Origin: Oscillospiraceae bacterium | GTDB taxonomy: Bacteria > Bacillota > Clostridia > Oscillospirales > Ruminococcaceae | NCBI GenBank assembly: GCA_017555565.1 | Contig: JAFZGF010000003.1 | Span: 1-33,776, forward strand | DNA length: 33,776 nt | Direction of reading: 5' to 3' | Shown: positions 7,391 through 30,780 of the stretch, piece by piece | How positions within the stretch are numbered: the stretch's first letter is position 1 | How the letters are laid out: each line of letters begins with the position of its first letter | Made by a program: the position numbers and the translations under genes | Notes under the pieces: model-generated | The model's input: only the letters and a program-made list of their open reading frames with translations | Databases searched by the model: none | Told to the model about the DNA's origin: nothing

Positions 7391-9273
7391 CACTGGAAAA
7401 TGTGGGCAAAAGCTGGGGTATAGATGTAATTCTGCAAAAAATCAATGCAGTTGTAAACGAAGGTGACCGCATCGGCATTATCGGCGAGAATGGGGCAGGT
7501 AAAACTACTTTACTCAACCTGCTTATGGGCGTTCTTGAAAATGATGAAGGCGATATTATCTTTGATGACAATGCTACGGTAGGTTATCTGCGTCAGATGG
7601 ATGGTTTAAACCTGGAAAACACCATTTATCAGGAAATGCAGACAGTTTTCGAGGCTGTTTACAGTGCAATCAGTGAATGTGCAGATATTGAAAAGCAACT
7701 TACCTTTACACCTGATGATGCAGCTCTTATTGAGCGCCACCACAGTTTACAGAATTTAATATACTCAAAAGACGGTTATAACACCGATTTTCTTATCAAG
7801 AAGATGCTGGGTGGTATGGGCTTTAAGGAAGAGGAATACAACAAAGTTGTAAAAGTCCTCTCCGGTGGTGAACGCACACGACTTAACCTTGCCAAACTTC
7901 TGCTGGAAAATCCGGATATACTCATCCTGGACGAACCTACCAACCATCTGGATTTTGACACACTTGTATGGCTGGAAGATTATCTCATCAGCTATAAAGG
8001 CGCTATCATCGCAGTCAGCCACGACAGATTCTTCCTGGACAAAGTTGTAAAAAAAATATGGGAAGTGGAAGATACTCTTCTTACTGAATACAAAGGCAAC
8101 TATTCAGCTTTTGATGTGCAGAAGCAGGAAAAACTCAAAGTTCAGCAAAGACAGTATGAAGCCGATATGGAGAAAGCTGCAAAACTGCAGGACTATGTTG
8201 ACCGCAACCTTGTTCGTGCATCTACCACAAAAATGGCACAGAGCCGTCGTAAACAGCTGGAAAAAATGGAAATCACAGAGAAACCGAAACCACTCCGTGT
8301 TCCTCTTAAATTTACATTTGATTTTGATGTAAAACCTTACGACGAAATACTTACAATAGAAAACCTTACAGTTGCCACAGGCAACCGTACACTTATCGAA
8401 AAACTCAATGTGGTCGTACGTCGCGGTCAGCGTCTGATTATTGCAGGTGCAAACGGCAGTGGCAAAACCACACTTATAAATACTATCACTGGCAAAATTC
8501 GTCCGAAAGAGGGCAAAATCAAACTGGGGCAGGGGGCAGTACCTGCTACATTTGACCAGCATATCACAGTTGGTTCATCTACAGTTATAGACACTATATG
8601 GGCTCTGCGTCCAAAATGGACACAGTTGGAAGTGCGTTCCTATCTGGCACGTTTTGGCTATCGCGGCGAAGATGTTTTCAAGGAATGTCACACACTCTCT
8701 GGCGGTGAAAGGGCAAGACTGCGCTTTTGTGAAATGAGCCTTGACCGCGCTAACATTATGTTTCTGGATGAACCTACCAACCATCTGGATATCTATATGC
8801 GACGGGCGGTTACAGAAGCGCTGGCTAAATACGAGGGTACAATACTTGTTGTTACCCACGACCGCTTCCTTATGCAGCAGCTGGATTGTCCGATTATGAA
8901 TATCGAAGGCGGCAAAGGTGTATTCTACGAAAACTTCGACGAATTTATGGCCAAACATAAATCCGAAGGCTTCAATACCAAACAGCAACAGCCAAAAATT
9001 GAAAAAACAGAAAAAACCAACAACTATTCTGCAAATCAGAAAGAAGCCCGCCGCCAGGCTGCAGCAGACCGTCTGCGAATGAGAGAATGCGAAAGGGATA
9101 TTGAACGACTGCAGGAAGAAATAGACAGCTACAACAACGATATGCAGAATCCTGAAATTACCACAGATCCTGTGAAAATGAGCGAATTGTGGCAAAAGCT
9201 GGAGGCCGCCAACACCCAGCTGGATGCCCTTTATGAAGAATGGGCTATACTTGGCGAAAAACTTGAAAGCTAA
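7381..9273 (+). CDS. ABC-F family ATPase (YdiF/Uup-like ribosome-associated factor)
   Basis: A 630-residue protein with two ABC ATPase domains and no membrane segments, which places it in the ABC-F class of translation factors acting at the ribosomal E site. Walker A sequences are GENGAGKTT (residues 35-43) and GANGSGKTT in the second half; signatures are LSGGERTRLNLAKLL and LSGGERARLRFCEM; both Walker B regions read LDEPTNHLD. The linker is charged and helical, and the C-terminal 110 residues form a coiled coil (ECERDIERLQEEIDSY), as in YdiF and Uup. It overlaps ybaK by 10 bases with GGAGG inside ybaK. Antibiotic protection by target displacement is possible for this class, but its chromosomal operon suggests housekeeping. 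Confidence 0.92.
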   Translation: MLITLENVGKSWGIDVILQKINAVVNEGDRIGIIGENGAGKTTLLNLLMGVLENDEGDIIFDDNATVGYLRQMDGLNLENTIYQEMQTVFEAVYSAISECADIEKQLTFTPDDAALIERHHSLQNLIYSKDGYNTDFLIKKMLGGMGFKEEEYNKVVKVLSGGERTRLNLAKLLLENPDILILDEPTNHLDFDTLVWLEDYLISYKGAIIAVSHDRFFLDKVVKKIWEVEDTLLTEYKGNYSAFDVQKQEKLKVQQRQYEADMEKAAKLQDYVDRNLVRASTTKMAQSRRKQLEKMEITEKPKPLRVPLKFTFDFDVKPYDEILTIENLTVATGNRTLIEKLNVVVRRGQRLIIAGANGSGKTTLINTITGKIRPKEGKIKLGQGAVPATFDQHITVGSSTVIDTIWALRPKWTQLEVRSYLARFGYRGEDVFKECHTLSGGERARLRFCEMSLDRANIMFLDEPTNHLDIYMRRAVTEALAKYEGTILVVTHDRFLMQQLDCPIMNIEGGKGVFYENFDEFMAKHKSEGFNTKQQQPKIEKTEKTNNYSANQKEARRQAAADRLRMRECERDIERLQEEIDSYNNDMQNPEITTDPVKMSELWQKLEAANTQLDALYEEWAILGEKLES

Positions 9274-12163: not shown

Positions 12164-13294
12164 TTATTCTATAGAGTTCAGTATTTCAAGAGCGCGTTCA
12201 CTTTCTTTAGGGAATAAATGTGAATATGTTTTTAAAGTTTGTTCTACAGTTGAATGGCCGAGGCGTCTGGCTATTTCCAAAGCATTGATGCCGTTGTTTA
12301 TAAGCAGGCTGGCGTGACTATGCCTGAAGTCGTGTATTCGGATTTTCTTTTGCTGTGAAGCTTTGGCGTATTTGATGTTTTCATTTTCCAGAGAAGAATC
12401 ACGCAGGGATTTATAATAACCGCAGATAAAACCATCTTCGGACCATTTCTGCCCGATAGAAAGTACAGCTTTTTGCTGTCTTGATTTATGTTCTGTGAGT
12501 ATTTTCATAAGTGGTAGCGGTATCTGAATGGTTCGGATACTGCTTTTGTTTTTCGGTGGAGTTTCCACATCGCCACCTTTCAGCTTCTGAGTGATTGATT
12601 TTTTGATTGAAAAATAATCACTGTCAATGCTGCTCCAGCGCAGGGCGTGTATTTCGCCTTTTCTGGCGCCGGTGTAATATGCTATACAGAAAAACACATA
12701 GTAATCATAATAACCGGTCTGCTCAGCTGTAATCAATGCTGCATCACGGAATAGCTTGAATTCTTCAGGGGTGTAGAACTGTATCTCTGATTTTTCTTCG
12801 TAGGCGTCGCGGAAGTTGCCTACTTTTAGCAAAGGGTTTGTGGAGAGATATTCCATTTTAACGGCATAGTTGAGCAGTGCCCTGAATTCGGTGTACAGGT
12901 TTTTTCGAGTCTGAAGCCGCAGCCCTTTTTCATTGATATATGTTTTCCAGTCGGACAGGGTCTTTGTGTTTAAATGGGTAAGCTGCTTGGAGCCGAGAAC
13001 AGGCTCTATGTGGAGTTTGAATATTGACTGCTTTTTTTCAAGGCTGGTTTGTCTGATCTCGTGCTGGATGCTGTTGCAGTATTCGCTGAACAGTGTGGAA
13101 AGCGTAATGCCGGTGGTTATGGAGCGTGAATCTGTTTGTTGTGTGAGCTGGCGTTCCAGCTCTTTGGCTTCGCGTGCTCCCCAGGCGGTGCGGGTGAGCT
13201 GTTTGTGATTGCCAAAACTGTCGGTATAATTAACGCGGACTTTGTATTTATAAACGCCGTCTTTGTTCTTTTCTTTTTGCTTATAAATAGGCAC
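12164..13294 (-). CDS. int: Phage integrase, tyrosine recombinase
   Basis: A 376-residue site-specific recombinase. The AP2-like arm-binding N-terminus reads YKYKVRVNYTDSFGNHKQLT; the SAM-like core-binding domain follows (about 60-160); catalytic residues are Arg211 in YYTGARKGEIHAL, His321 and Arg324 in HDFRHSHASL, His347 in RRLGHS and the nucleophile Tyr357 in TLKTYSHLFP. The start is GTG at 13294 because AAAGGTGGT lies 5-6 bases upstream; the open frame to 13429 has no ribosome site and crosses a promoter-like hairpin. It points toward the host junction, as expected at a prophage end. Confidence 0.95.
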   Translation of the reverse strand: MPIYKQKEKNKDGVYKYKVRVNYTDSFGNHKQLTRTAWGAREAKELERQLTQQTDSRSITTGITLSTLFSEYCNSIQHEIRQTSLEKKQSIFKLHIEPVLGSKQLTHLNTKTLSDWKTYINEKGLRLQTRKNLYTEFRALLNYAVKMEYLSTNPLLKVGNFRDAYEEKSEIQFYTPEEFKLFRDAALITAEQTGYYDYYVFFCIAYYTGARKGEIHALRWSSIDSDYFSIKKSITQKLKGGDVETPPKNKSSIRTIQIPLPLMKILTEHKSRQQKAVLSIGQKWSEDGFICGYYKSLRDSSLENENIKYAKASQQKKIRIHDFRHSHASLLINNGINALEIARRLGHSTVEQTLKTYSHLFPKESERALEILNSIE

Positions 13295-13326
13295 AAAAAT
13301 ACCACCTTTCGTAAAAATAGGTACAC

Positions 13327-13356
13327 TTGATAAACCTATACGAAATGTGGTATACT
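13327..13356 (+). promoter_or_regulatory. Strong plus-strand promoter in the int leader
   Basis: TTGATA (13327-13332), an 18-base spacer and TATACT (13351-13356) with TGG in front (extended -10). It points away from int and has no protein gene downstream on its strand. The -10 lies in one arm of an imperfect inverted repeat (TGTGGTATAC.. / ..GTATATACCACA, 13346-13385). Confidence 0.6.
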
Positions 13357-13362
13357 CGTAGT

Positions 13363-13446
13363 GTTCAAGTAGGAGTATATACCACAAAACGTATAAGCTT
13401 CTATAACTAATCCTCGGTGTTGGTAGCACCGGGGATTTTTTTTATT
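13363..13446 (+). ncRNA. Candidate small RNA antisense to the repressor-cargo-int transcript
   Basis: Between the promoter at 13327 and an intrinsic terminator (stem CCTCGGTG/CACCGGGG at 13412-13434, loop of 7, then ATTTTTTTTATTTT) lies an RNA of about 85 nucleotides with no reading frame of note. It would be transcribed opposite to the three minus-strand lysogeny genes and covers the gap between the cargo gene and int. Evidence is promoter plus terminator geometry only. An alternative is that the terminator serves an unseen longer plus-strand transcript. Confidence 0.5.
13412..13446 (+). terminator. Rho-independent terminator, plus strand
   Basis: GC-rich 8-bp stem with a 7-base loop and a run of eight T. 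No plus-strand protein gene ends here, which is why the small RNA is proposed. On the minus strand the same hairpin has no T tail. Confidence 0.75.
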
Positions 13447-14363: not shown

Positions 14364-14999
14364 TTAAAACATTCTGATAAAGCCGATGGCTTTACCTTCG
14401 ATTGATACTGAATTGATTTCGTCTTTTGTAAGGACGATTGGCGGAAAGTCTGAATTTTCTGCAATAAGCATCAGCTGGTCCGGAGCAGGGCGGTAGACCT
14501 TTTTCAGTGTGGCTTCGTCGCCTATGCGGACTGCAGCTATTTCGCCATTATCAACTGTAGGCTGTTTACGGATAAGAACCAGGTCGCCGTTCTGGCAACG
14601 CGGCAGCATACTGTCGCCTTTGCAGATTAAACAAAAGTCTGCAGAATCATCCGGGTTAAGGGAGAGATAACCTTCTATATTTTCCTGCGCCAGGATAGGT
14701 GTACCGCAGGCTATAGAGCCGATGATAGGAACACGCTTGCCGGTTGGCAGGGGGATAATGCCTGGAATATTCATTTCTGTATGTTTTGTGTTGTCTTCAT
14801 CCAAATCACCAAGCAGTTGAGAGGGTGAGATATTTAATACTTTGGCAAGATTGCCGATTTTATCTCTGCGGAGATTTTTGATTTCTCCACTTTCCCAGCG
14901 TTGTACGGTGGCTTTAGAAACACCGACAGCGTTTCCGATTTCTTCAAGTGTTAAATTTAATTCTGTTCGCTTTATTCTTAAAATATCTTTAAGTTCCAT
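14364..14999 (-). CDS. CI-like phage repressor with S24 self-cleavage domain
   Basis: A 211-residue repressor. The HTH is ELNLTLEEIGNAVGVSKATVQRWESG (residues 13-38). The LexA-type peptidase domain has Ser130 in GDSMLPRCQNGD and the general base Lys in EATLKKVYR (166/167). The cleavage loop SIACGTPILA puts a Cys-Gly bond where LexA has Ala-Gly, as in the P22 c2 repressor. RecA-stimulated self-cleavage in the SOS response should induce the prophage. The start ATG 14999 has GAAGGTG 6 bases upstream; it is divergent from the Cro gene across a 155-base operator region. Confidence 0.93.
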   Translation of the reverse strand: MELKDILRIKRTELNLTLEEIGNAVGVSKATVQRWESGEIKNLRRDKIGNLAKVLNISPSQLLGDLDEDNTKHTEMNIPGIIPLPTGKRVPIIGSIACGTPILAQENIEGYLSLNPDDSADFCLICKGDSMLPRCQNGDLVLIRKQPTVDNGEIAAVRIGDEATLKKVYRPAPDQLMLIAENSDFPPIVLTKDEINSVSIEGKAIGFIRMF

Positions 15000-15030
15000 A
15001 TATTTCACCTTCTTTAATTTATATATTATC

Positions 15031-15052
15031 ATTATAGTAACGAAAATGCAAC
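15031..15052 (-). promoter_or_regulatory. Repressor promoter -10 with operator copy
   Basis: On the minus strand TATAAT (15036-15031) precedes the repressor gene by 31 bases. Directly upstream of it, in the promoter spacer, lies GTAACGAAAATGCAAC (15037-15052), a diverged copy of the GTTACG-N4-CGTAAC operator. Occupancy here would turn off repressor synthesis. Confidence 0.55.
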
Positions 15053-15122: not shown

Positions 15123-15138
15123 GTTACGGAAACGTAAC
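15123..15138. promoter_or_regulatory. Operator, perfect dyad
   Basis: GTTACGGAAACGTAAC is a perfect 6-4-6 inverted repeat placed just after the early promoter's -10 and before the Cro ribosome site. It is the best copy and defines the operator consensus. Confidence 0.75.
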
Positions 15139-15154
15139 GAAAGGAGAAAGAAAA

Positions 15155-15355
15155 ATGTTTAGAATTGAAAAGTTCAAAGCTGCGTTAGTCGAAAACGGCC
15201 TTACTGTTGCAGATGCTGCAGCGGCTATGGGAATAAGTAAACAGGCATTATATCGCAAAATGAATGGCGAAAGTGATTTTTACAGAGAAGAAATACAAGC
15301 TTTCCGAAAGTTGATAAATCGTGATAATGTCGATGACATTTTTTTTGCCGAATAA
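15155..15355 (+). CDS. Cro-like small helix-turn-helix protein
   Basis: A 66-residue protein that is almost entirely a helix-turn-helix: GLTVADAAAAMGISKQALYRKMNGES at residues 15-40. The strong site AAAGGAGAAAG precedes the ATG. Its place opposite the repressor, its size and the flanking operators fit Cro, which in lambda-like switches represses the repressor promoter. The operators lie both before and just after the gene, which supports autoregulation. Confidence 0.85.
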   Translation: MFRIEKFKAALVENGLTVADAAAAMGISKQALYRKMNGESDFYREEIQAFRKLINRDNVDDIFFAE

Positions 15356-15371
15356 GTTACGGAAACGCAAC
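15356..15371. promoter_or_regulatory. Second near-perfect operator after cro
   Basis: GTTACGGAAACGCAAC differs from the perfect operator by one base. It begins one base after the Cro stop codon and lies between cro and the next small gene. Confidence 0.65.
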
Positions 15372-15719: not shown

Positions 15720-15910
15720 CCTGTTCTGTATATAATGCCGGCACATCAAGTCGGTTATTGATGTCAAGAGAAAAATATGGTGGTTTCATAAGGCAGCTGA
15801 TAATCACCTCCTGTTGAATTAAATATCACTTTATACCTCTCGAGATTTAAAAGTGTTTTGAAAAAAGTTGCTGTATGCATACTCAAAGCCGGCATTATAT
15901 ACAGAACAGG
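15720..15910. repeat. 23-bp perfect inverted repeat enclosing 145 bp
   Basis: Bases 15720-15742 are the exact reverse complement of 15888-15910. Each arm reads CCTGTTCTGTATATAATGCC toward the inside and so carries a TATAAT. The 145-bp interior holds a small hairpin (ACATCAA/TTGATGT, 15743-15764) and, on the minus strand at 15812-15803, AGGAGGTGAT, a perfect anti-16S match without a well-spaced start codon. The element fills the gap between the divergent genes at 15655 and 15947. It may be an invertible control segment, a long RNA hairpin or a small non-autonomous element; no target duplication is visible. Confidence 0.8.
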
Positions 15911-15946
15911 AAATAACAAAGAGTGAAAACAAAGGAGGTGCGGGAT

Positions 15947-20649: not shown

Positions 20650-21549
20650 ATGGCTGGTAAATGGTCTGCAGAAGAAACTGCTCTGTTAAAAGAACTGCTG
20701 ACAGCACATACGGTACGGGAAGCGCGGCAAAAGCTGGGGCGCAGTGAGTATGCTGTAAGAAAGCAGATGCGAAAGCTGAAAGACAGTAAAGACCCGGTGA
20801 AGTACGAAGATATGAACCGGGAAGACGGTGAGAATATACGCAGGATGTATAAAAGGGCCGAAAACAAGGTAGAACGGCTGAAAATACTGAAAGAGTTATA
20901 TCCAAGCTATACAAAGGAAACAATCCTGGCAGCGGCGTTACATAATCCGTTCCTGGAAAGTGATAAATTTTATGAGCAAATAACAAAGGAGCAAAACGAA
21001 GTGAAAAAAGTAATCAAAGGTTTTGACGAGGAAACCAAGGCGGCGGCAGTCAGAGCTGTAATGCTGGATGGTGAAAAAGTCACAACAGTAGCTGAAAGAT
21101 ATGGCATATCAGACCAGACCGTTTATAACTGGGTGAAGCGGGCGAAGAAAACACAACAGCAGTTTATAGATTATGCCGAAAAAACAGAAAAAGAGCTGGC
21201 CGAAGAAAAGGATGCAGAGCCAGAAGATAAAAAAATCGACTGGCAGCGTCTGGAAAAGGCATCAGCTGAGCGGAATAAGAAAGTCGTGGATAATCTGGGA
21301 TTAGGGCAAAAACGGGATGTCGAGGACGCCATCCCCTACGCGAAAGATGAAACAGATACTGTGTATGAGTATGTGGATGAAGGCAGTAAGACTGCGATAG
21401 ATGAAAAAGCAATCAAAGCAGCGGCTTTTGATGTAATTACAAACCAGATGAACGACTACCCATCAAGTAACACTGATACAATGATGCGGTTTATCCAGGG
21501 GGTACAGGCTCTGGCGGGGCAGTTATGCGAGGCGCAGGGAAAATGTTGA
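20650..21549 (+). CDS. DNA-binding protein with SANT-like and transposase-type HTH segments
   Basis: A 299-residue protein. Residues 1-45 (KWSAEETALLKELLTAHTVREARQKLGRSEYAVRKQMRKL) look like a Myb/SANT-type helix triplet. Residues 123-165 (FDEETKAAAVRAVMLDGEKVTTVAERYGISDQTVYNWVKRA) are a helix-turn-helix of the kind at the start of IS3-type OrfA proteins, but no transposase domain follows. The remainder is charged helix. Two DNA-binding parts in one protein beside rep suggest a role in origin recognition or regulation; this is inference. It starts 4 bases after the previous stop. Confidence 0.65.
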   Translation: MAGKWSAEETALLKELLTAHTVREARQKLGRSEYAVRKQMRKLKDSKDPVKYEDMNREDGENIRRMYKRAENKVERLKILKELYPSYTKETILAAALHNPFLESDKFYEQITKEQNEVKKVIKGFDEETKAAAVRAVMLDGEKVTTVAERYGISDQTVYNWVKRAKKTQQQFIDYAEKTEKELAEEKDAEPEDKKIDWQRLEKASAERNKKVVDNLGLGQKRDVEDAIPYAKDETDTVYEYVDEGSKTAIDEKAIKAAAFDVITNQMNDYPSSNTDTMMRFIQGVQALAGQLCEAQGKC

Positions 21550-23854: not shown

Positions 23855-23888
23855 TGCCGGCAGCGGTAATTGGAGAGGGGGAGATTTG

Positions 23889-24227
23889 GTGACAAACAAA
23901 GAGTGGCTGAACAGAGGCTGGAAGCTGATAGAGGAAGTAAACAGCCTTGAGAAAGCCAGAGACAAGCGGATAAAGGTCCGGGGAGAAAAGAAAGCTGAAA
24001 AATACACAAAGTTGATTGATAAAAAGGTTCGCGAGCTGATTGTTGTGCACATTGAAATACTGAGAGCAATCAACCGACTGGCCGACAGAAAAGACAGAAT
24101 GATTCTGCAGCTGAGATACCTGGCATATATGAGTCACGAGGAAATCGCCCGGGTGATGGAATATGACGAAACCAGAAGCGTGGCAAGAAGAATTGATTCT
24201 GCAGCTGAAAGAATAGTGCAGAGGTAG
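23889..24227 (+). CDS. Sigma-region-4-like phage late transcription regulator (ArpU/RinA type)
   Basis: A 112-residue helical protein. The first two thirds are a charged helix bundle. The C-terminal part RMILQLRYLAYMSHEEIARVMEYDETRSVARRIDSAAERI is the RNA-polymerase sigma region 4 pattern (LRY...S..EIA..M.Y....V.R....A). Proteins like this directly before the terminase genes control late phage transcription in Gram-positive phages. The start is GTG 23889 with AGGGGG 8 bases upstream (TTG 23886 is possible). Three dyad-type promoters in the late region are its obvious candidate targets. Confidence 0.75.
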   Translation: MTNKEWLNRGWKLIEEVNSLEKARDKRIKVRGEKKAEKYTKLIDKKVRELIVVHIEILRAINRLADRKDRMILQLRYLAYMSHEEIARVMEYDETRSVARRIDSAAERIVQR

Positions 24228-24229
24228 AT

Positions 24230-25561
24230 ATGGTTATAAACTGGAAAGCAAACCCACAGCAGAGAAAGTTTTTCAATGCAACGGCAGACGAGGTGCTGTA
24301 TGGCGGTGCTGCAGGTGGCGGGAAAAGCTATGGTGCTGTAATGGATGCATTTATGTATGCACTGAGATATCCGAAATCAAAGCAGCTGATACTGCGCCGC
24401 ACCTTCCCTGAACTGGAAAAGAGTATAATCCGTGTACATCTGGAACTGTACCCAAGAGAACTGTACAAATATAACCAGACAAACCATACAGGAAAGTTTG
24501 TAAATGGCAGTATTATAGACTTTGGCTATATTGACCACGAAAATGATGTAATACAGTATCAGTCTGCAGAATATGATGTTATACGATTTGACGAGCTGAC
24601 GCACTTTACCGAAAACATGTATGTATATATGCTGTCCCGACTGCGCGGTGCCAACGATTATCCGAAGCAGATAAAAAGCGGCACCAACCCAGGAGGAATT
24701 GGTCACCGGTGGGTGAAAAAGAGGTTTATAGACACGGTACCAGCTGGGCAGGTATACACATCAGATGCAGGGACAACAAGGGTGTTTATCCCTGCGAAGG
24801 TAACTGACAACGTGGCGCTGATGAAAAAAGACCCGTCATATATAAAAAGGCTGATGAACCTGAGCGAGAAAGATAAAAAAGCTCTGCTGGATGGCAGCTG
24901 GGATTTCTTTGAAGGCGCGTATTTTTCAGAGTTTGACAGGAGTATACACGTGTGTAAGCCGTTTACAGTACCGGAATACTGGACAAAATATGTTGCCCTG
25001 GACTATGGGCTGGATATGCTGGCAGCATATGTAATAGCCGTTGATGAAAGCGGCAAAGCCTGGGTAATGCGTGAGGTAAGCGAAAGCAATCTGATTATTA
25101 AACAAGCAGCGGCACGTATAAAAAGCTTGGTAGGAAATGATAAGATAACAGCTTATTTTGCTCCACCGGATATGTGGAACAGGCGCCAGGACACAGGTAA
25201 GAGTGTGCGGGAGATTTTTGCAGAAAACGGCATTTATATCGTGAAAGCCGGAAATGACAGAGTGCAGGGATGGTATGGCCTGAAAGAATACCTGCATCCA
25301 TATAAGGATGAAACAGGAAGTATTACAGCAAAGATGGCTATATTTGAAAATTGCACATATCTGATAAGCAGTTTGCCGAACCTGGTACACGATGACCACA
25401 ATCCAAACGATGTATCCACAAAGCCTCACGAACTGACGCACGGTGCGGATGCAATAAGATATTTTGTAGCCGGCAGACCTATCAATGGACAGGTGCCACA
25501 GGAAAGAGATGACGACGTTCTGGATTATGATGACCAGATAGATGATTTTCTGGATTACTGA
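24230..25561 (+). CDS. terL: Terminase large subunit
   Basis: A 443-residue DNA-packaging motor. The ATPase has Walker A GGAAGGGKS (25-33), Walker B DVIRFDELTHF (acidic pair Asp121-Glu122) and the coupling motif SGTNPGG (about 150-156). The nuclease has YVALDYGLD near 251-259, a middle acidic residue and HGADAIRYF near 415-423, which fits the RNase H-like fold. The acidic C-terminus is unusual in being so Asp-rich (RDDDVLDYDDQIDDFLDY). It starts 2 bases after the late regulator. A repeat- and terminator-bearing gap follows, unlike the normal tight packing with portal. Confidence 0.95.
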   Translation: MVINWKANPQQRKFFNATADEVLYGGAAGGGKSYGAVMDAFMYALRYPKSKQLILRRTFPELEKSIIRVHLELYPRELYKYNQTNHTGKFVNGSIIDFGYIDHENDVIQYQSAEYDVIRFDELTHFTENMYVYMLSRLRGANDYPKQIKSGTNPGGIGHRWVKKRFIDTVPAGQVYTSDAGTTRVFIPAKVTDNVALMKKDPSYIKRLMNLSEKDKKALLDGSWDFFEGAYFSEFDRSIHVCKPFTVPEYWTKYVALDYGLDMLAAYVIAVDESGKAWVMREVSESNLIIKQAAARIKSLVGNDKITAYFAPPDMWNRRQDTGKSVREIFAENGIYIVKAGNDRVQGWYGLKEYLHPYKDETGSITAKMAIFENCTYLISSLPNLVHDDHNPNDVSTKPHELTHGADAIRYFVAGRPINGQVPQERDDDVLDYDDQIDDFLDY

Positions 25562-25625
25562 GTTATTCTTTATAAATCAGCAGACAGCGGTTTATAACGA
25601 ATAATTTTTGATTTATAACGAATAA
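25562..25625. repeat. Three copies of a TTTATAACGAATAA repeat after terL
   Basis: Direct copies lie at 25591-25604 and 25612-25625, 21 bases apart. An inverted copy with one mismatch (GTTATTCTTTATAAA) is at 25562-25576, touching the terL stop. The spacing of two helical turns fits a protein-binding array. Confidence 0.6.
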
Positions 25626-25628
25626 CAG

Positions 25629-25664
25629 CCTGACATGTAATGACAGGCAGCAGCGGTGTAGAAT
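25629..25664 (+). promoter_or_regulatory. Late promoter candidate 1 (dyad plus -10)
   Basis: Dyad CCTGACATGTAATGACAGG at 25629-25647, 11 bases, then TAGAAT at 25659-25664. The dyad would cover about -24 to -42, where the usual -35 is missing. It lies upstream of a terminator, so its transcript may be short or anti-terminated. Confidence 0.6.
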
Positions 25665-25712
25665 ATATATGTGCCTGGCAGGGCACCTCCTTTGTATTTA
25701 AGTTTGGCAGAG

Positions 25713-25738
25713 AAGACGGGATAATTCCCGTCTTTTTT
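25713..25738 (+). terminator. Terminator between terL and terS
   Basis: AAGACGGGA/TCCCGTCTT stem, loop TAAT and TTTTTT tail. It separates the terL transcript from the late structural operon. Confidence 0.85.
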
Positions 25739-25745
25739 GCTTTTA

Positions 25746-25781
25746 CCTGACATGTGATGACAGGATAGCAGGGGGTAAAAT
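25746..25781 (+). promoter_or_regulatory. Late promoter candidate 2, before terS
   Basis: Dyad CCTGACATGTGATGACAGG at 25746-25764, 11 bases, then TAAAAT at 25776-25781, 23 bases before the terS start. There is no TTGACA-type -35. It follows the terminator directly, which makes it the likely start of the late operon. Confidence 0.65.
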
Positions 25782-25803
25782 AGGCTGTGAAAGGGGGTAA
25801 ATT

Positions 25804-26346
25804 ATGGCTAAAAAAGGTACCACAAAAAAAGAGGGTAAAAAAACAGCTAAAAAAAGAGGCAGACCGGCAAAGCCAAAAGAGAAAATCAAAAAGGAAGAAC
25901 TGCTGACGGAAAACCAGGAGCTTTTTTTATATTTTTTAGTATACGAGGGTTTGAGCCAGCGTGAAGCCTACAGGAAAGCATACCCCAACTGCCACGCCAA
26001 AGACAGCGTGGTTGACGTGAAAGCAAGTACGCTGCTGAAGGTGGATAAGGTAAGGGTAAGGTATCAGACTATGCTGGAAGACCGCAGAAGACGCCGATAC
26101 AGCCGTGCTGTTGCCCGTGCTCCACTGGTGGAAGACAGGCTGTATAACATAGCGATGGGAGAAACAAAAATCAAAATTACCGACAAAAAAGGTAGGGAGA
26201 TTGAAGTGTATCCCAATGTAAAGGAACAAACCAGAGCATTGGGCGAACTGAACAGGGTATTCAGCGAAGTAATGAACAAACAGGAATTTGGAGCCACAGA
26301 AGACTCAAGGCAGGTAATTATCAATATTTCACCATTTGAAGAGTAA
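25804..26346 (+). CDS. terS: Terminase small subunit
   Basis: A 180-residue DNA-recognition subunit. The basic N-terminus (KKGTTKKEGKKTAKKRGRPAKPKEK) carries an AT-hook-like GRPAKP. The Terminase_2 helix-turn-helix follows: LTENQELFLYFLVYEGLSQREAYRKAYP then VDVKASTLLKVDKVRVRYQTM (39-100). The C-terminal part is an oligomerisation/motor-binding region. TerS normally precedes TerL and binds the pac or cos site; here it follows TerL and is itself followed by a 450-base repeat region that may be its binding site. GGGGG lies 7 bases before the ATG. Confidence 0.9.
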   Translation: MAKKGTTKKEGKKTAKKRGRPAKPKEKIKKEELLTENQELFLYFLVYEGLSQREAYRKAYPNCHAKDSVVDVKASTLLKVDKVRVRYQTMLEDRRRRRYSRAVARAPLVEDRLYNIAMGETKIKITDKKGREIEVYPNVKEQTRALGELNRVFSEVMNKQEFGATEDSRQVIINISPFEE

Positions 26347-26354
26347 AGCATTTT

Positions 26355-26406
26355 TATAGCATCACTATAGCATCACTATAGCATCACTATAGCATCAGCA
26401 TAGCAT
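26355..26406. repeat. 11-bp tandem repeats, four copies plus a partial one
   Basis: TATAGCATCAC repeats at 26355, 26366, 26377 and 26388 (last copy ends in G), with a partial CATAGCAT at 26399. The period of one helical turn starts 8 bases after the terS stop. Confidence 0.9.
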
Positions 26407-26466
26407 TTTATCGATTGCATTTTGTTTTATCGCTGGTTTCGATATGAGATATCGAGTGTATCGAGG

Positions 26467-26499
26467 GCTTGGATTAAGCTTGGATTAAGCTTGGATTGA
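26467..26499. repeat. Second 11-bp tandem repeat, three copies
   Basis: GCTTGGATTAA at 26467 and 26478, and GCTTGGATTGA at 26489. It has the same period as the first array but an unrelated sequence. Confidence 0.9.
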
Positions 26500-26500
26500 T

Positions 26501-26614
26501 GTTAATACGTGCATGTTTTAAGAAAAGATGCACGTATTAACAATAAATGCTGCACGTATTAACAAAAATGCTGCACGTATTAACAAAAATGCTGCACGTA
26601 TTAACAAAAATGCT
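26501..26614. repeat. 21-bp tandem repeats with an inverted copy
   Basis: GCACGTATTAACAAAAATGCT occurs at 26552, 26573 and 26594 without gaps, and a 22-base variant at 26530. The reverse complement of its core, GTTAATACGTGCA, stands at 26501-26513 and makes a 14-bp perfect stem with the first direct copy. The period equals two helical turns. Confidence 0.9.
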
Positions 26615-26745
26615 GCAGAAATGTAAAGTATAGTTTCAGGTTTATAGAAAAAAGTTACATTTTGTAACATTTTTCGTAATAAATTTGATTTTCAGTGGAA
26701 AAATTTTCTTTTTTTGGAGTGTTTTATAGTGTTTTCGAGTGAATA

Positions 26746-26760
26746 TCGAGTTTAACTCGA
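26746..26760. promoter_or_regulatory. 15-bp palindrome in the repeat region
   Basis: TCGAGTTTAACTCGA is a perfect palindrome. TATCGAG-type words recur through 26410-26465 and at 26744. The remainder of the 456-base gap (26615-26745) is AT-rich with GTTAC/GTAAC (26654-26668) and no gene. Confidence 0.45.
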
Positions 26761-26802
26761 CAGGTCGCGCGAATTTTACACGCGGGCGTGAAAGGACAAT
26801 GT

Positions 26803-26922
26803 ATGAAAGCGAGAGTAAGAGGAAGGATAAACGGCCATTGCAGATACTGCAGGCGAAGGAACTGCAGCAGGTTAAAAAGATTTATACACAGATTCATCCT
26901 TTGTGATGACTGGAAATGGTGA
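26803..26922 (+). CDS. Very small basic cysteine-containing protein
   Basis: A 39-residue frame: MKARVRGRINGHCRYCRRRN, then CSRLKRFIHRFILCDDWKW. It has four Cys and two His with 11 Arg, so a single zinc knuckle that binds nucleic acid is plausible. AAAGGA lies 6 bases before the ATG. It directly follows the repeat block and overlaps no other gene. Confidence 0.5.
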   Translation: MKARVRGRINGHCRYCRRRNCSRLKRFIHRFILCDDWKW

Positions 26923-26935
26923 AAGGAGGGGGAGT

Positions 26936-27136
26936 ATGGAAGTGTTTTACACATGTGCAGTTATAGCAATGTTTGTGCTGGGTACAGGCTTTGGCTATTG
27001 CATCGGCAAAAACGGTGCGGTGGTAATCGACAGGGCTGATACAAAGAAAAAGGAAGAAATTACGGCAAAGAAATCTGTGGAACAGCAGTGGGAAGATATG
27101 ATGAACTATGATGGCAATATCGGAAAGGATAAATGA
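26936..27136 (+). CDS. Small membrane-anchored phage protein
   Basis: A 66-residue protein with an N-terminal transmembrane helix (MEVFYTCAVIAMFVLGTGFG), a basic middle and an acidic tail (VEQQWEDMMNYDGN). GGAGGGGGAG precedes the ATG at 26936. It overlaps the portal gene by 4 bases. The N-in/C-in single-pass layout is common among small proteins upstream of portal genes; function unknown. Confidence 0.65.
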   Translation: MEVFYTCAVIAMFVLGTGFGYCIGKNGAVVIDRADTKKKEEITAKKSVEQQWEDMMNYDGNIGKDK

Positions 27137-28737
27137 TGGCAGATATAACAAGCAAAGAGATATTTGAAAAATATCGCAGAGATACCAGGTACAAATCAAA
27201 CTTGGAGCTGTATGACAAGATAGAGCAGCAGGAGAATTTCTTTATTGGCAGGCAGTGGGTGGGGCTGAATGCACCTGACCTGGAAAAGCCAGTAATCAAT
27301 GTAACAAAGCGAGTTACAAACTATGAAATCAGTGTTCTGCTGGTTAATGATGTGGGTGTAAACTTCCGAGATGGCCTGCCTACAAGCGGCAATAAGAATA
27401 TTGCAGAGATTAAAGATAACAGCAAGTGGATGGAGATGGTATCCAACGAACTGGAAAAGGTACAGGAAAATATAAAGTTTCGTGAAAAGATGCGCCACGT
27501 GCTGCGCAATGCGGCAGTAGATGGTGATGCGGCAATGTATACCCGCTTTATTCCAGAAGACGGAGGAAACCCGGATGTGGTGTCAGGTCACATCGAAACA
27601 GAGATTATTGACAATCTGAATGTACATTTTGGTGATAAACAGACATCAGAAGTACAGAAACAGCCGTGGATTATTATCAGTAAAACAGAGCTGACAAGGG
27701 GCCTGAAGGAAAAATATCCGGACAAGGAAGAATATATAAGTGCAGACGGCAGAAATTATTTCAGTGAGAATAAAAGCCGTATTGATGATGAAATGACAAC
27801 AGTCTGCATTTACTTCTGGCGAAACAAGGACACGGGCAATGTATGGTATATGATGTGTACAGAAGACTGTGTACTGGAAGAGGCAACTGATACGATGCTG
27901 AAAAGATACCCTGTGTCCTGGATGAACTGGGAAATGGTGAAGGATTGCTATCACGGGATAGGTGTGGTGGAGGAAATTATACCTAATCAGATTGCAATCA
28001 ATAAACTGTGGGCAATGAGCCTGCTGTATGCAAAAAACAGTTCTTTTCCAAAAATAATTTTTGATAAAACCAAACTGGATAAATGGACAAACAAGGTGGG
28101 CGCTGCCATAGGTGTGGCAGGCAATCCGAATGATGCAATAGCGGCCACGTTCAGACCAAGTGACCTGCCTGGACAGATCCTGAACCTGGTAAGCCAGACA
28201 ATTTCATACACAAAAGAGTTTATGGGTGCCAATGATGCGGCGCTGGGTAATGTAAGACCGGAAAACACTTCTGCTATTATTGCGCTGCAGCAGTCAAGTG
28301 CCGCGCCACTGGAACTGCAAAGACAGACATTTTACCAGTTCATTGAGGACTGGGTGAGAACAGTATACGAGATTATGCGTGTAAAATACGGAAAAAGATA
28401 TACCATAGCCGAACAGGAAATACAGGATGAAAATGGTCAGGCCATAAAACAGAAAATGGCTGTGCTGGTGGATTTTGGCGAAATGCCTGCGGACAGTGAT
28501 GTGATAGTAGATATCGGGGCATCAGACTACTGGAGCGAAATTACCCAGACCAGCACAATGGATAACCTTTTCAGTAAAGGCATTTTACAGGATGCATTGG
28601 TGTATATGGAAAATGTTCCGGACAAACATATCAAAAATAAGCAGAAAGTAATTGAAGCAATTAAACGAGCCCAGGAACAGCAGCGGCAGAAAGAGGCGCA
28701 GGCCCAGCAGATGCAGATGATGGGGCTGAAAATGTAA
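27133..28737 (+). CDS. Phage portal protein
   Basis: A 534-residue protein forming the head vertex through which DNA enters and leaves. The start region KYRRDTRYKSNLELYDKIEQQENFFIGRQWVG, the PVINVTKRVTNYEISVLLVND segment (about 53-73), the internal TKEFMGANDAALGNVRPENTSAIIALQQSS (about 358-387) and the C-terminal charged Gln-rich helix (RAQEQQRQKEAQAQQMQMM) are typical of portals of short-tailed and P22-like Firmicutes phages. The start at 27133 overlaps the previous stop (ATGATGG); 27136 is equally good. It is followed by late promoter 3. Confidence 0.9.
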   Translation: MMADITSKEIFEKYRRDTRYKSNLELYDKIEQQENFFIGRQWVGLNAPDLEKPVINVTKRVTNYEISVLLVNDVGVNFRDGLPTSGNKNIAEIKDNSKWMEMVSNELEKVQENIKFREKMRHVLRNAAVDGDAAMYTRFIPEDGGNPDVVSGHIETEIIDNLNVHFGDKQTSEVQKQPWIIISKTELTRGLKEKYPDKEEYISADGRNYFSENKSRIDDEMTTVCIYFWRNKDTGNVWYMMCTEDCVLEEATDTMLKRYPVSWMNWEMVKDCYHGIGVVEEIIPNQIAINKLWAMSLLYAKNSSFPKIIFDKTKLDKWTNKVGAAIGVAGNPNDAIAATFRPSDLPGQILNLVSQTISYTKEFMGANDAALGNVRPENTSAIIALQQSSAAPLELQRQTFYQFIEDWVRTVYEIMRVKYGKRYTIAEQEIQDENGQAIKQKMAVLVDFGEMPADSDVIVDIGASDYWSEITQTSTMDNLFSKGILQDALVYMENVPDKHIKNKQKVIEAIKRAQEQQRQKEAQAQQMQMMGLKM

Positions 28738-28745
28738 ATTTTTAA

Positions 28746-28781
28746 CCTGACATGTAATGACAGGTAACAGTGTTTTATAAT
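28746..28781 (+). promoter_or_regulatory. Late promoter candidate 3, before the head genes
   Basis: Dyad CCTGACATGTAATGACAGG at 28746-28764, 11 bases, then a perfect TATAAT at 28776-28781. It lies 8 bases after the portal stop and 18 bases before the next start, so scaffold and capsid can be made at a higher level than portal. Confidence 0.7.
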
Positions 28782-28798: not shown

Positions 28799-28990
28799 AT
28801 GAAGACTTGCATATGCAGTGAGAGACCATTGACCATAATTTCTTCCAAAACAGTAATGATGGACAATGTACCCTATGAAGAATTGCAGTTTGCGTGCAGT
28901 AACAAAAACTGCGAGCACTACAAAAAGCCGGTGGTAAGACAGCTGATAAATCTGTTGGATAAGAAAACCACTATTGAGGAAGAGATATAA
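28799..28990 (+). CDS. Small zinc-ribbon protein between portal and scaffold
   Basis: A 63-residue protein with Cys residues CIC (4-6) and CSNKNCEHYKKP (33-44), a Com/zinc-ribbon-like pattern. GCGAGG precedes the ATG by 8 bases. Similar tiny zinc proteins occur near head genes in some phages; the role is unknown. Confidence 0.65.
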   Translation: MKTCICSERPLTIISSKTVMMDNVPYEELQFACSNKNCEHYKKPVVRQLINLLDKKTTIEEEI

Positions 28991-29059: not shown

Positions 29060-29911
29060 ATGTTTGAAGCTGAACAGACCAATCAGTATGAAAACGATTT
29101 TTTGGCCGGTCTGAATGAGACCGATGATTTCTCTGAAGAAACAGAGGAAGAAACAACAGCCACAGAACAGGAAGAAGCAGAACAGACCAGTGAAGCTGAA
29201 ACTGACGATGAAGGCGCACAGGAACAGGAACAGCAGCAGGAGCAGAAAGAAGATGCCCAGCAGGCTGAAATGTTTCCAAGAGTTATAAAATTTCTGGGTG
29301 AAGATAAACAGATTACCATGGACGAGGCGGTTATAGCTATTCAGAAAGGCATGAACTATGATCGCATGCTGGAAAAATACAAAGGTCAGCTTGCGGACGT
29401 GCAGAAAGACCCACGTATTATGTTCGTAGAAAATCTGGCGGCAAAAGCCGGGGTGGATGCAAACACATATATTACCATGCAGAACAACCAGGGTGAATAC
29501 CAGGCGTTGATTGATGAATATGGTGATATTTCAAGTGTGCCAGTATCCATTATGGATAAATTCAATAAATACTCACAGTCTGCTATCGAAAAAGCAAAGG
29601 CCGACAGTAGAGCGGCAGAGGAACAGGCTTACCTGGAACAGAAAGAGGCTGAGTATTATGAGTTTATGGAAAAACATCCAGAGTTCAGCGGTGAAGTACC
29701 GCAGGAAGTAATTGCAATGGTACATAAAGGCGAAAGTCTGGAAGGTGCATATGCAATACACAGAGTGGCAGAACTTACAAAAGAGCTGGCACAGACAAAA
29801 AAAGACTTTGATATTTTTAAAGCCAACACAGCCAATAAAAACAGCGGACTGCCTGATGCAAAGGGCGGCAAAAGAGAGCTGGACGATTTTTTGGAAGGCT
29901 TACTGGGCTGA
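29060..29911 (+). CDS. Scaffolding protein
   Basis: A 283-residue, very acidic, helix-rich protein directly before the capsid gene. Residues 1-70 are a disordered Glu/Thr/Gln stretch (ETEEETTATEQEEAEQ type); 70-280 are predicted coiled helices (KADSRAAEEQAYLEQKEAEYY, ELAQTKKDFDIFKANTA). Composition, length and position are those of phage scaffolds that template capsid assembly and then leave. The C-terminal KRELDDFLEGLLG would be the capsid-binding end. AAAGGAAA precedes the start. Confidence 0.85.
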   Translation: MFEAEQTNQYENDFLAGLNETDDFSEETEEETTATEQEEAEQTSEAETDDEGAQEQEQQQEQKEDAQQAEMFPRVIKFLGEDKQITMDEAVIAIQKGMNYDRMLEKYKGQLADVQKDPRIMFVENLAAKAGVDANTYITMQNNQGEYQALIDEYGDISSVPVSIMDKFNKYSQSAIEKAKADSRAAEEQAYLEQKEAEYYEFMEKHPEFSGEVPQEVIAMVHKGESLEGAYAIHRVAELTKELAQTKKDFDIFKANTANKNSGLPDAKGGKRELDDFLEGLLG

Positions 29912-29949: not shown

Positions 29950-30780
29950 ATGGCAGTAAATCTTGCTTCAAAATACTCAAAACATATTCAGACAATTTAT
30001 GTGAAAGAGTCACTTGTTGCTGGCAGACTGAGCCAGGAATATGACTTTAACGGTGTAAAGACAGTTACTGTATACACACCTACAACAGTTCCAATGGGCC
30101 CATATACACGCGAAGGCGCTAACCGATATGGCACACCTACAGAAATGCAGGACACAAAACAGGAACTGACACTGACACAGGACCGCGCTTTTTCACTGAC
30201 AATCGATAAAGGCAACAATGAAGACCAGATGGGTGCAAAATCTGCAGGCAAAATGCTGCAGCTGCAGATTGCTGAAAGAGCTGTGCCAGAGTTTGACAAG
30301 TATGCACTTGGCAAAATGGCTACAGGTGCCGGCAAGGTAAACGCAGGTGCAGCGCTGACAAAATCAACAATCTGTGAAAGAATCTCTTCTGGCACAGAAT
30401 GGCTTGATGATGCAGAAGTGCCTGAAACAGACAGAACACTGTGGATTACAACTGCTGGTTACAAACTGCTGAAACATTCAGAAGAATTTATGGCAGTGGA
30501 AAAAATCGCAGGCAGAGCGATTGCAAAAGGTGAAGTGGGTACATACGATAATATGACAGTTATCAAAGTACCAAAATCCAGAATGCCTGACGGTGTGAAC
30601 TTTATTATTGCGCACAGAAATGCGGCAACAGCACCTGTGAAAATGAGCGAAACAAAAATCCATCAGGACCCACCAGGCATCTCCGGCGCACTGCTGGAAG
30701 GCAGAGAATACTATGACTGCTTTGTATTCGAAGCAAAGAAAAACGGTGTGTACTGTGACAAAAATACATCAGGCACTTAA
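29950..30780 (+). CDS. Major capsid protein
   Basis: A 276-residue protein following the scaffold. MAVNLASKYSKHIQTIYVKESLVAG at the start, KTVTVYTPTTVPMGPYTREG, the SLTIDKGNNEDQMGAKSAGKMLQLQIAERAVPEFD spine-helix region (about 77-118) and C-terminal IAHRNAATAPVKMSETKIH fit small HK97-fold capsid proteins of Firmicutes phages. The gene uses preferred codons more than its neighbours, as highly expressed capsid genes do. GGAGAGAC lies 5 bases upstream; a hairpin follows. Confidence 0.88.
   Translation: MAVNLASKYSKHIQTIYVKESLVAGRLSQEYDFNGVKTVTVYTPTTVPMGPYTREGANRYGTPTEMQDTKQELTLTQDRAFSLTIDKGNNEDQMGAKSAGKMLQLQIAERAVPEFDKYALGKMATGAGKVNAGAALTKSTICERISSGTEWLDDAEVPETDRTLWITTAGYKLLKHSEEFMAVEKIAGRAIAKGEVGTYDNMTVIKVPKSRMPDGVNFIIAHRNAATAPVKMSETKIHQDPPGISGALLEGREYYDCFVFEAKKNGVYCDKNTSGT

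What the first reader, a model, noticed from the sequence alone, without database searches (positions are those of the whole stretch)
25629..28781. Three fixed-spacing dyad promoters in the late region, likely targets of the adjacent sigma-like regulator
The 19-bp dyad CCTGACATGTRATGACAGG (half-site CCTGNCAT) occurs three times, at 25629, 25746 and 28746. In every case exactly 11 bases separate it from a -10-like hexamer (TAGAAT, TAAAAT, TATAAT). No copy has a -35 box; the dyad occupies that place. All three lie in gene-free gaps ahead of late genes (terS, head genes), and a sigma-region-4-like protein of the ArpU/RinA type is encoded just before terL. The simplest reading is a late regulon with its own activator and operator, which I do not recognise as a described sequence family. 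I noticed no fourth copy in the window.
Basis: partly seen in the sequence, partly recalled or inferred. Interest (0 to 1): 0.78.

Follow-up and report, generated by a model that had tools for sequence, protein, structure and literature searches.

The report
Phage late promoters lacking -35 box
A virus dormant in a gut bacterium carries three copies of a 19-letter sequence exactly where the usual second promoter signal should be, which is best read as landing sites for a viral protein that switches on its packaging and shell genes.

Summary
Three 19-bp imperfect dyads (25629, 25746, 28746) lie exactly 11 nt before TAGAAT/TAAAAT/TATAAT. Identity stops at the element edges, there is no usable -35, and no fourth copy in the window or its 2.08-Mb genome. 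Best reading: activator-dependent late promoters of a temperate phage, with the operator on the -35 position (centre about -33); they work like, but are not members of, Mu Mor/C or T4 MotA-box promoters. Sites 2 and 3 precede terS and the capsid genes. The PF07374-type protein before terL is the best candidate activator, but nothing ties it to the dyads, which no other searched genome carries. Sister genomes hold something larger: genus-wide, scattered GTA-like capsid cassettes. In 8 of 9 split genomes both cassettes share another fixed-spacing box (GGA-N7-GGGATG, usually 26 nt before the -10), and that box led to a barnase/barstar cassette in three genomes.

The parts
25629..25647 (+). dyad 1 CCTGACATGTAATGACAGG (predicted -42 to -24 of promoter P1)
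25659..25664 (+). -10 hexamer TAGAAT of P1
25671..25743 (+). predicted short RNA from P1: 5' hairpin 25671-25686, 19-nt open linker with CUCCUUUG, terminator stem 25706-25741; no ORF
   Evidence: 25669-25745: MFE -35.2 kcal/mol, z -5.07, 0 of 200 shuffles as good; start inferred as 7 nt after the hexamer
25746..25764 (+). dyad 2 CCTGACATGTGATGACAGG (P2, terS)
25776..25781 (+). -10 hexamer TAAAAT of P2
28746..28764 (+). dyad 3 CCTGACATGTAATGACAGG (P3, small ORF - scaffold-like - major head protein)
28776..28781 (+). -10 hexamer TATAAT of P3
23886..24227 (+). candidate activator: 113-aa PF07374 / sigma-region-4-like protein, directly before terL
24230..25561 (+). terminase large subunit (upstream of all three promoters)
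25804..26346 (+). terminase small subunit, first gene of P2
   Evidence: three PHROGs terS families; Pfam Terminase_2 hit is below its cut-off
27133..28737 (+). portal protein
28799..28990 (+). 63-aa ORF, first gene of P3
   Evidence: no family above cut-off
29950..30780 (+). major head protein, downstream of P3
25563..25625 (.). three copies of TTTATAAMGAATAA (25563 -, 25591 +, 25612 +) directly upstream of dyad 1 only
15123..15371 (.). two GTTACG-N4-CGTAAC dyads (15123 exact, 15356 one mismatch) beside the CI-like repressor: presumed CI operators, unlike the late dyad
   Evidence: repressor 14364-15032

Best explanation
The three sites are late promoters of a temperate phage that depend on a phage-encoded activator. 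Each has a good -10 for the host RNA polymerase but no -35. The 19-bp operator lies on the -35 position (about -42 to -24, centre about -33), so an activator bound there must take over or remodel the contact that sigma region 4 normally makes. P2 starts terS and the genes up to the portal; P3 starts the scaffold-like and capsid genes; P1 starts an untranslated RNA of about 70 nt that ends at an intrinsic terminator just before P2. The most likely activator is the 113-aa sigma-region-4-like protein (PF07374) made with terL from an upstream, presumably middle, promoter, probably as a dimer. Shown: sequence, spacing, lack of -35, positions, predicted terminator fold, gene family hits. Inferred: promoter activity, timing, the activator's identity, the RNA's existence.
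For: Exact spacing and element-only conservation. No usable -35 or TGn. All three sites fall in gene-free gaps that make up 1021 of 8869 bases of the late region as I listed its genes (chance 0.0015 if independent). Hexamers of P2 and P3 end 22 and 17 nt before an ATG, with SD-like AAAGGGGG and GCGAGG between. Neighbouring late genes identified. No other copy in 2.08 Mb of host genome at up to 3 mismatches except 21846, so a host regulator is unlikely. Presumed CI operators differ. Region-4-like protein directly before terL, arrangement kept in G242. Sister capsid cassettes in the same genus carry, ahead of their packaging genes and ahead of their capsid genes, another fixed-spacing box at about -38 to -32.
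Against: No expression or binding data. The dyad was found in no relative, so there is no comparative test of operator against regulator. No equivalent trio in 40 other PF07374 neighbourhoods. An activator centred at -33 is unusual (Mu Mor sits at -43.5), so a repressor is a natural alternative. The 299-aa HTH protein 20650-21546 hits phrog_36 (4.8e-5) and phrog_836 'late transcriptional activator' (4.7e-4) and could be the binder. In the sister promoters 10 of 16 have a 4-of-6 -35 at 16-18 nt, so they may be ordinary weak promoters and only a loose parallel. The longest late gap (26347-26902) has no dyad.
Confidence: 0.57

Rival explanations
1. The dyads are operators of a phage repressor that covers the -35 region and keeps late genes silent; promoters fire when it leaves.
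For: A dyad centred on the -35 position is a classic repressor position (recalled); it would block sigma region 4.
Against: With no -35 and no TGn there is little promoter left to repress; the one clear repressor, CI-like 14364-15032, has different apparent operators.
Confidence: 0.15
2. Activator-dependent late promoters as in the best explanation, but the binder is another phage protein, e.g. the 299-aa HTH protein at 20650-21546 or an early protein.
For: 20650-21546 hits HTH_23 (1.7e-10), phrog_36 (4.8e-5) and phrog_836 'late transcriptional activator' (4.7e-4) among ten families; nothing links the PF07374 protein to the dyads by co-occurrence.
Against: Late activators of Gram-positive phages lie just upstream of the packaging genes (PMC13123087 passages), as the PF07374 protein does; the best hits of 20650-21546 are transposase-type HTH models, and it lies far from terL.
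Confidence: 0.23
3. The dyads are packaging or replication sites (terminase or partition binding), and the -10-like hexamers are incidental.
For: Two of three copies lie just before terS; pac/cos sites often lie near terS (recalled).
Against: Three of three share TANAAT at the same offset (about 1.5e-7 if any of 40 offsets counts); the third is 3 kb away ahead of the capsid genes; a better packaging-site candidate is the 21-bp repeat array 26502-26628.
Confidence: 0.04

Closest known systems
Phage Mu middle promoter Pm / Mor (and C-dependent late promoters)
   Same: -10 without -35 or extended -10; a phage activator dimer binds a dyad in place of the -35; host sigma-70 polymerase (PMC4287176 and PMC4390567, passages).
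   Different: Mor dyad is 16 bp (-51 to -36), centred -43.5; here 19 bp, centre about -33, about one turn closer. No hit named Mor or C among the window proteins scanned. Sequence not compared.
T4 middle promoters (MotA box, sigma appropriation)
   Same: Element replaces the -35, lies 12 +/- 1 bp from the -10 and is centred at -30 (PMC2988021, passages); here the element ends 11 bp from the -10.
   Different: MotA box is about 10 bp, not a dyad, bound by a monomer with AsiA; no hit named MotA or AsiA here; three promoters rather than nearly 60.
Late transcriptional regulators of Gram-positive phages (phi13 Ltr, TP901-1 Alt, RinA, ArpU)
   Same: Small protein (about 130 aa in the paper, 113 here) encoded just before packaging genes, controlling late genes; -10 present.
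   Different: phi13 Ltr and Alt act on four repeats upstream (-107 to -42; -76 to -32) (PMC13123087, passages), not on one dyad at -33. RinA/ArpU likeness rests on family hits (PF07374, phrog_36) and recall; the RinA papers were not held.
GGGATG-box promoters of the genus's GTA-like cassettes (found here)
   Same: Ahead of packaging genes and ahead of capsid genes, fixed spacing to the -10.
   Different: Different box (GGA-N7-GGGATG, GGGATG starts 25-27 nt before the -10), no dyad in most copies, 10 of 16 with a 4-of-6 -35; regulator unknown.

Membership tests
Mu Mor/C-type activator promoters | -10 present, no -35, no TGn | tested here: met
Mu Mor/C-type activator promoters | dyad centred near -43.5 | tested here: not met
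   centre about -33 from the sequence (19 bp + N11, start inferred); -43.5
Mu Mor/C-type activator promoters | Mor/C-family activator encoded by the phage | tested here: inconclusive
   no hit named Mor or C; 20650-21546 hits phrog_836 'late transcriptional activator' weakly; the contig ends inside the late region
T4 MotA-box middle promoters | element replaces -35, 11-13 bp from the -10 | tested here: met
   N11 in all three; 12 +/- 1
T4 MotA-box middle promoters | MotA and AsiA homologues | tested here: inconclusive
   no hit of that name among the window proteins scanned; the cut-off right end and small ORFs were not examined
PF07374 (DUF1492) ArpU/RinA-like regulators | score over the Pfam gathering cut-off | tested here: met
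   22.0 v 21.5 bits, marginal; the G242 relative passes Sigma70_r4_2 (28.4 v 25.7) and does not hit PF07374
PF07374 (DUF1492) ArpU/RinA-like regulators | encoded directly before packaging genes | tested here: met
   23886-24227 ends 2 nt before terL; same order in G242:C48
PF07374 (DUF1492) ArpU/RinA-like regulators | binds and activates the late promoter | not testable with these tools
   needs footprinting or in vitro transcription
CI operators | same sequence as operators beside the repressor | tested here: not met
   GTTACG-N4-CGTAAC at 15123 and 15356; that these are CI's operators is inferred
Intrinsic terminator after P1 | stable GC-rich hairpin followed by U tract | tested here: met
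   16-bp stem 25706-25741 by folding, z -5.07 for 25669-25745; not listed by the simple scan, which lists only the weaker 25671-25686 hairpin there and finds no more terminators than shuffles (10 v 9.2)
Gene transfer agents (sister cassettes) | packaging of random host DNA into particles | not testable with these tools
   only gene content, conservation and scattering were seen

The most novel reading that the evidence does not exclude
The phage does not recruit sigma-A by a neighbouring activator but swaps its region 4: a free-standing, dimeric region-4-like protein occupies the -35 position itself (dyad centre -33, two TGACA cores one helical turn apart) while host sigma region 2 reads the -10. 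One of its three promoters is devoted to a stable late small RNA of about 70 nt with an exposed anti-SD-like CUCCUUUG.
Probability: 0.2. Interest if true: 0.75.

Novelty: new variant of a known kind. Interest (0 to 1): 0.5.

Why it matters
It gives a compact, testable example of a phage replacing the -35 contact of host RNA polymerase with a dyad centred on -33, in a phage with a small sigma-4-like late regulator whose mechanism was not described in the passages read. It also predicts a late phage small RNA. Because the phage is a temperate cousin (TerL 62%, capsid 65%) of scattered capsid cassettes kept throughout its host genus, it offers a living comparison for how phage late control may have been rewired in GTA-like systems.

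Tried and rejected
Pattern scans for relatives of the dyad. 88 IMG/VR stretches match the 14-base dyad; none of the readings printed has TANAAT at N11 (one reading of L027 is cut by the locus end). 49 stretches match a relaxed dyad plus hexamer, each with a single match. I read both as chance level. 148 sampled genomes of the family at up to 3 mismatches: 60 places, 56 outside the own genome (5 of these at 2 mismatches, the rest at 3), against 48 for the reversed-pattern control. 394 sampled genomes of the order with dyad+N11+hexamer at up to 3 mismatches: 1 of 394, the own genome.

Search for an equivalent trio in relatives. One search looked for repeated dyads in 47 sequences including the window, at most the best five pairs printed for each; several have other repeated dyads (for example L131, L257, L258), and none printed resembles the window trio. 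One search looked for repeated blocks before TANAAT in 61 sequences, 903 kb: 12 pairs, of which 3 are the window trio, 1 is L358 and 8 (L374 four, L384 two, L256 and L365 one each) match along 32-45 of the 45 bases compared. Three decoy hexamers gave 5, 8 and 5 pairs; most are such long matches, but three (window 2559/12805, L359, L258) are short ones at 15 of 17, so single weak pairs mean little. An earlier count said the decoys gave only duplications; that is wrong. L358 (GTCGTTGTCCCGAAAATGATACA-N10-TATAAT, twice) lies ahead of what read like ImmA and UmuC/YolD-type genes, not late genes (no family search).

I first took AGGGGATGCTGTCCCCT-N11-TATAAT (L249) as a second dyad of the same geometry. 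Of 16 sister promoters most keep only the left box, so I dropped that claim.

Short-RNA targets: the best predicted duplex of the linker apart from its own complement (-20.5 kcal/mol) is inside an ORF and unremarkable; the complement to the SD at 15930 is what an anti-SD-like stretch gives. No Rfam family: two hits far below gathering.

Consensus sigma-70 sites are no more frequent than in shuffles (19 v 23.2).
Full report
WHAT IS THERE. The window is the whole of contig C30 of a 2.08-Mb, 85-contig genome. A same-genus contig (G242:C48) has the same length and match as CASFSP010000048.1, titled uncultured Oscillospiraceae, and is taken to be that record. Genes with host-type family hits lie at the left. 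A prophage begins near an integrase (12164-13429, -) and a CI-like repressor (14364-15032, -) and runs to the cut-off right end. The late region is: regulator 23886-24227, terL 24230-25561, gap, terS 25804-26346, long gap, ORF 26903-27136, portal 27133-28737, small ORF 28799-28990, scaffold-like 29060-29911, major head protein 29950-30780 and further genes. 'Scaffold-like' is my reading of position; its only hit is phrog_14606, unknown function.

CHECK OF THE OBSERVATION. The three elements and their spacing are exact. Aligned on the dyads, the copies agree at 18 of 19 dyad columns and 5 of 6 hexamer columns, but at only 1 of 11 spacer, 3 of 40 upstream and 1 of 44 downstream columns. Selection on two elements and their distance explains this; duplication of a longer block does not. 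At 16-18 nt spacing the best match to TTGACA is 3 of 6. The 5-of-6 matches ATGACA and CTGACA lie at 13 and 23 nt, outside the normal range, and there is no TGn. With the hexamer at -12 to -7, the dyad spans -42 to -24 and its centre is at -33, the middle of where a -35 hexamer would lie. The element can also be read as two direct TGACA cores 10 bp apart (6 of 9 positions at shift 10, against 7 of 8 inverted arm pairs), so inverted or tandem recognition is open.

P2 and P3 read directly into terS and into the small ORF before the scaffold-like and capsid genes: 22 and 17 nt lie between the hexamer and ATG, with SD-like sequences. P1 has no gene. From its predicted start (25671) come a 6-bp hairpin, a 19-nt open linker containing CUCCUUUG (the anti-SD core, recalled), and a 16-bp terminator stem with U tract, then P2. 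The stretch folds at -35.2 kcal/mol, z -5.07, 0 of 200 shuffles as good. So P1 should give a short stable RNA of about 70 nt, or a terminated leader. The terminator may simply end terL transcription, the plainer alternative. P1 alone has three copies of TTTATAAMGAATAA just upstream of the dyad, unexplained.

WHO BINDS. The 113-aa protein before terL hits phrog_36 (transcriptional regulator, 1.6e-7) and phrog_248 (activator, 9.9e-4), passes PF07374 by half a bit, and is below the cut-off for Sigma70_r4_2. NCBIfam gives 13 models, all far below their cut-offs, 12 of them sigma factors. Its one close relative (43%, G242:C48) keeps the order regulator-terL, but the contig ends inside terL. Elsewhere: 297 sampled genomes of the family, 13 with a match at E <= 1e-3 including own and G242, the rest 25-37% identical; 2 of 16 genomes of the genus, own and G242; no relative in IMG/VR or the phage collection; 2 loci in GTDB contigs, the G242 record and a 35% hit. 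A link by co-occurrence is therefore impossible at present. The CI repressor is unlikely because its apparent operators differ. A host factor is unlikely because the genome has no other copy at up to 3 mismatches except 21846, which lacks the hexamer. The phage's 299-aa HTH protein (20650-21546) also hits phrog_36 (4.8e-5) and phrog_836 'late transcriptional activator' (4.7e-4), below its best hits to transposase-type HTH models; it is the main rival binder.

IS IT A GENERAL PLAN? The dyad itself looks private: 1 of 394 sampled genomes of the order, and only chance-level matches in IMG/VR. Of 69 PF07374 places in 297 genomes I fetched 40 neighbourhoods, many cut by contig ends; none has an equivalent late trio. 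TerL relatives led to the sister loci below.

THE SISTER SYSTEM. TerL relatives occur in 16 of 16 genomes of the genus and capsid relatives in 16 of 16, one each except two in the own genome. In nine genomes (G000, G101, G242, G293, G301, G304, G305, G306, G307) the terL and capsid cassettes are apart. In seven of these they are on different contigs, so their distance is unknown. In G293 RsfS and LeuRS lie between (the same pair precedes the capsid cassette of G000), and in G301 YibE/F, NfeD and SPFH genes lie between, with the portal a third piece. The other seven (G183, G297, G298, G299, G300, G302, G303) have terL and capsid on one contig, 1.6-4.7 kb apart. In 8 of the 9 split genomes (not G293) both cassettes have a GGGATG box before a TANNAT hexamer. 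These 16 were collected by that box (the same patterns hit 4 other places in the 23 loci scanned), so its presence in all 16 is by construction. Not part of the pattern, and shared by 16 of 16, are GGA ten to eight bases before it and an A two bases before it. GGGATG starts 26 nt before the hexamer in 13, 25 in 2 and 27 in 1. A -35 of 4 of 6 exists at 16-18 nt in 10 of 16, so these may be weak ordinary promoters with an added box. The small genes before terL and before the capsid gene are called terS and scaffold from position only (one of the latter was scanned: no hit).

A strict version of the box was then sought in 396 sampled genomes of the family: 8 places in 4 genomes, all among the 7 genomes of this genus in the sample (own genome 0), reversed-pattern control 0. 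Five are known cassettes. The other three (G301:C15, G304:C26, G101:C33) were not used to make the pattern. All three precede a gene with a barnase-type RNase domain (PF00545 over cut-off) and a MuF-like N-terminus (PF04233 just below cut-off), followed by barstar (PF01337 over cut-off), again at 26 nt. Scattered, genus-conserved capsid cassettes under one box look like a gene transfer agent. Such an element (FpGTA, two operons about 125 kb apart, podovirus-like) was reported in Faecalibacterium in 2026, with GTA-type packaging also seen in Oscillospiraceae (PMC12946183: passages and section 9); 'promoter' occurs 0 times in its main text. I did not test homology to FpGTA proteins, and particle production cannot be tested here.

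HOW IT MOST LIKELY WORKS. The regulator and TerL are made from an upstream promoter; the regulator binds the three dyads and brings in or remodels host polymerase at promoters that lack a -35; packaging, portal, scaffold and capsid genes follow, with a short RNA from P1. The logic is that of Mu Pm/Mor (dyad at -43.5, no -35; PMC4287176 and PMC4390567 passages) and of the T4 MotA box (12 +/- 1 bp from the -10, replacing the -35; PMC2988021 passages). Gram-positive Ltr/Alt regulators use repeats further upstream (PMC13123087 passages). Membership fails for Mor/C on position, is undecided for MotA/AsiA, and is met, marginally, for PF07374. PMC4461284 was seen as passages only.

NOVELTY. New variant of a known kind: a -35-replacing dyad centred on -33 with fixed N11, in a phage with a sigma-4-like regulator, plus a predicted late small RNA. 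That this is not in print rests only on the word searches in an open-access library; none searched for the letters of the dyad.

Noticed in passing
G000:C14:105750 and C46:3438; L249, L254, L255, L429, L431-L437, L445, L452, L455, L456: Genus-wide, scattered, GTA-like capsid/packaging cassettes (TerL and capsid relatives in 16 of 16 genomes). In 8 of 9 split genomes both cassettes have the promoter box GGA-N7-GGGATG, 25-27 nt (13 of 16: 26) before the -10.
   Followed up: partly
L470:4375-5324, L471:4469-5416, L472:5114-6060: The same box precedes a third cassette in three genomes: a MuF-like N-terminus fused to a barnase-type RNase, followed by barstar. It suggests a nuclease/immunity pair co-regulated with the GTA-like capsid genes.
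   Followed up: partly
26344-26398 and 26502-26628: Terminase-portal gap holds 4 overlapping 22-nt copies of an 11-nt unit (TATAGCATCAC) and 5 overlapping copies at 21-22 nt spacing of GCTGCACGTATTAACAAAAAT; candidate packaging or TerS-binding site.
   Followed up: no
15720-15742 and 15888-15910: Perfect 23-nt inverted repeat CCTGTTCTGTATATAATGCCGGC around 145 bp in the early region: possible invertible segment or divergent control element.
   Followed up: no
25563-25625: Three TTTATAAMGAATAA copies (two direct at 21 bp, one inverted) between the terL stop and dyad 1; no other copy in the window with one mismatch or fewer.
   Followed up: partly
L358:6189-6211 and 8751-8773 (-): Unrelated pair of identical 23-bp elements GTCGTTGTCCCGAAAATGATACA 10 nt before TATAAT, one ahead of what reads like an ImmA peptidase gene followed by a UmuC-like gene, one ahead of another gene; looks like a regulon of a mobile element (no family search).
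   Followed up: partly
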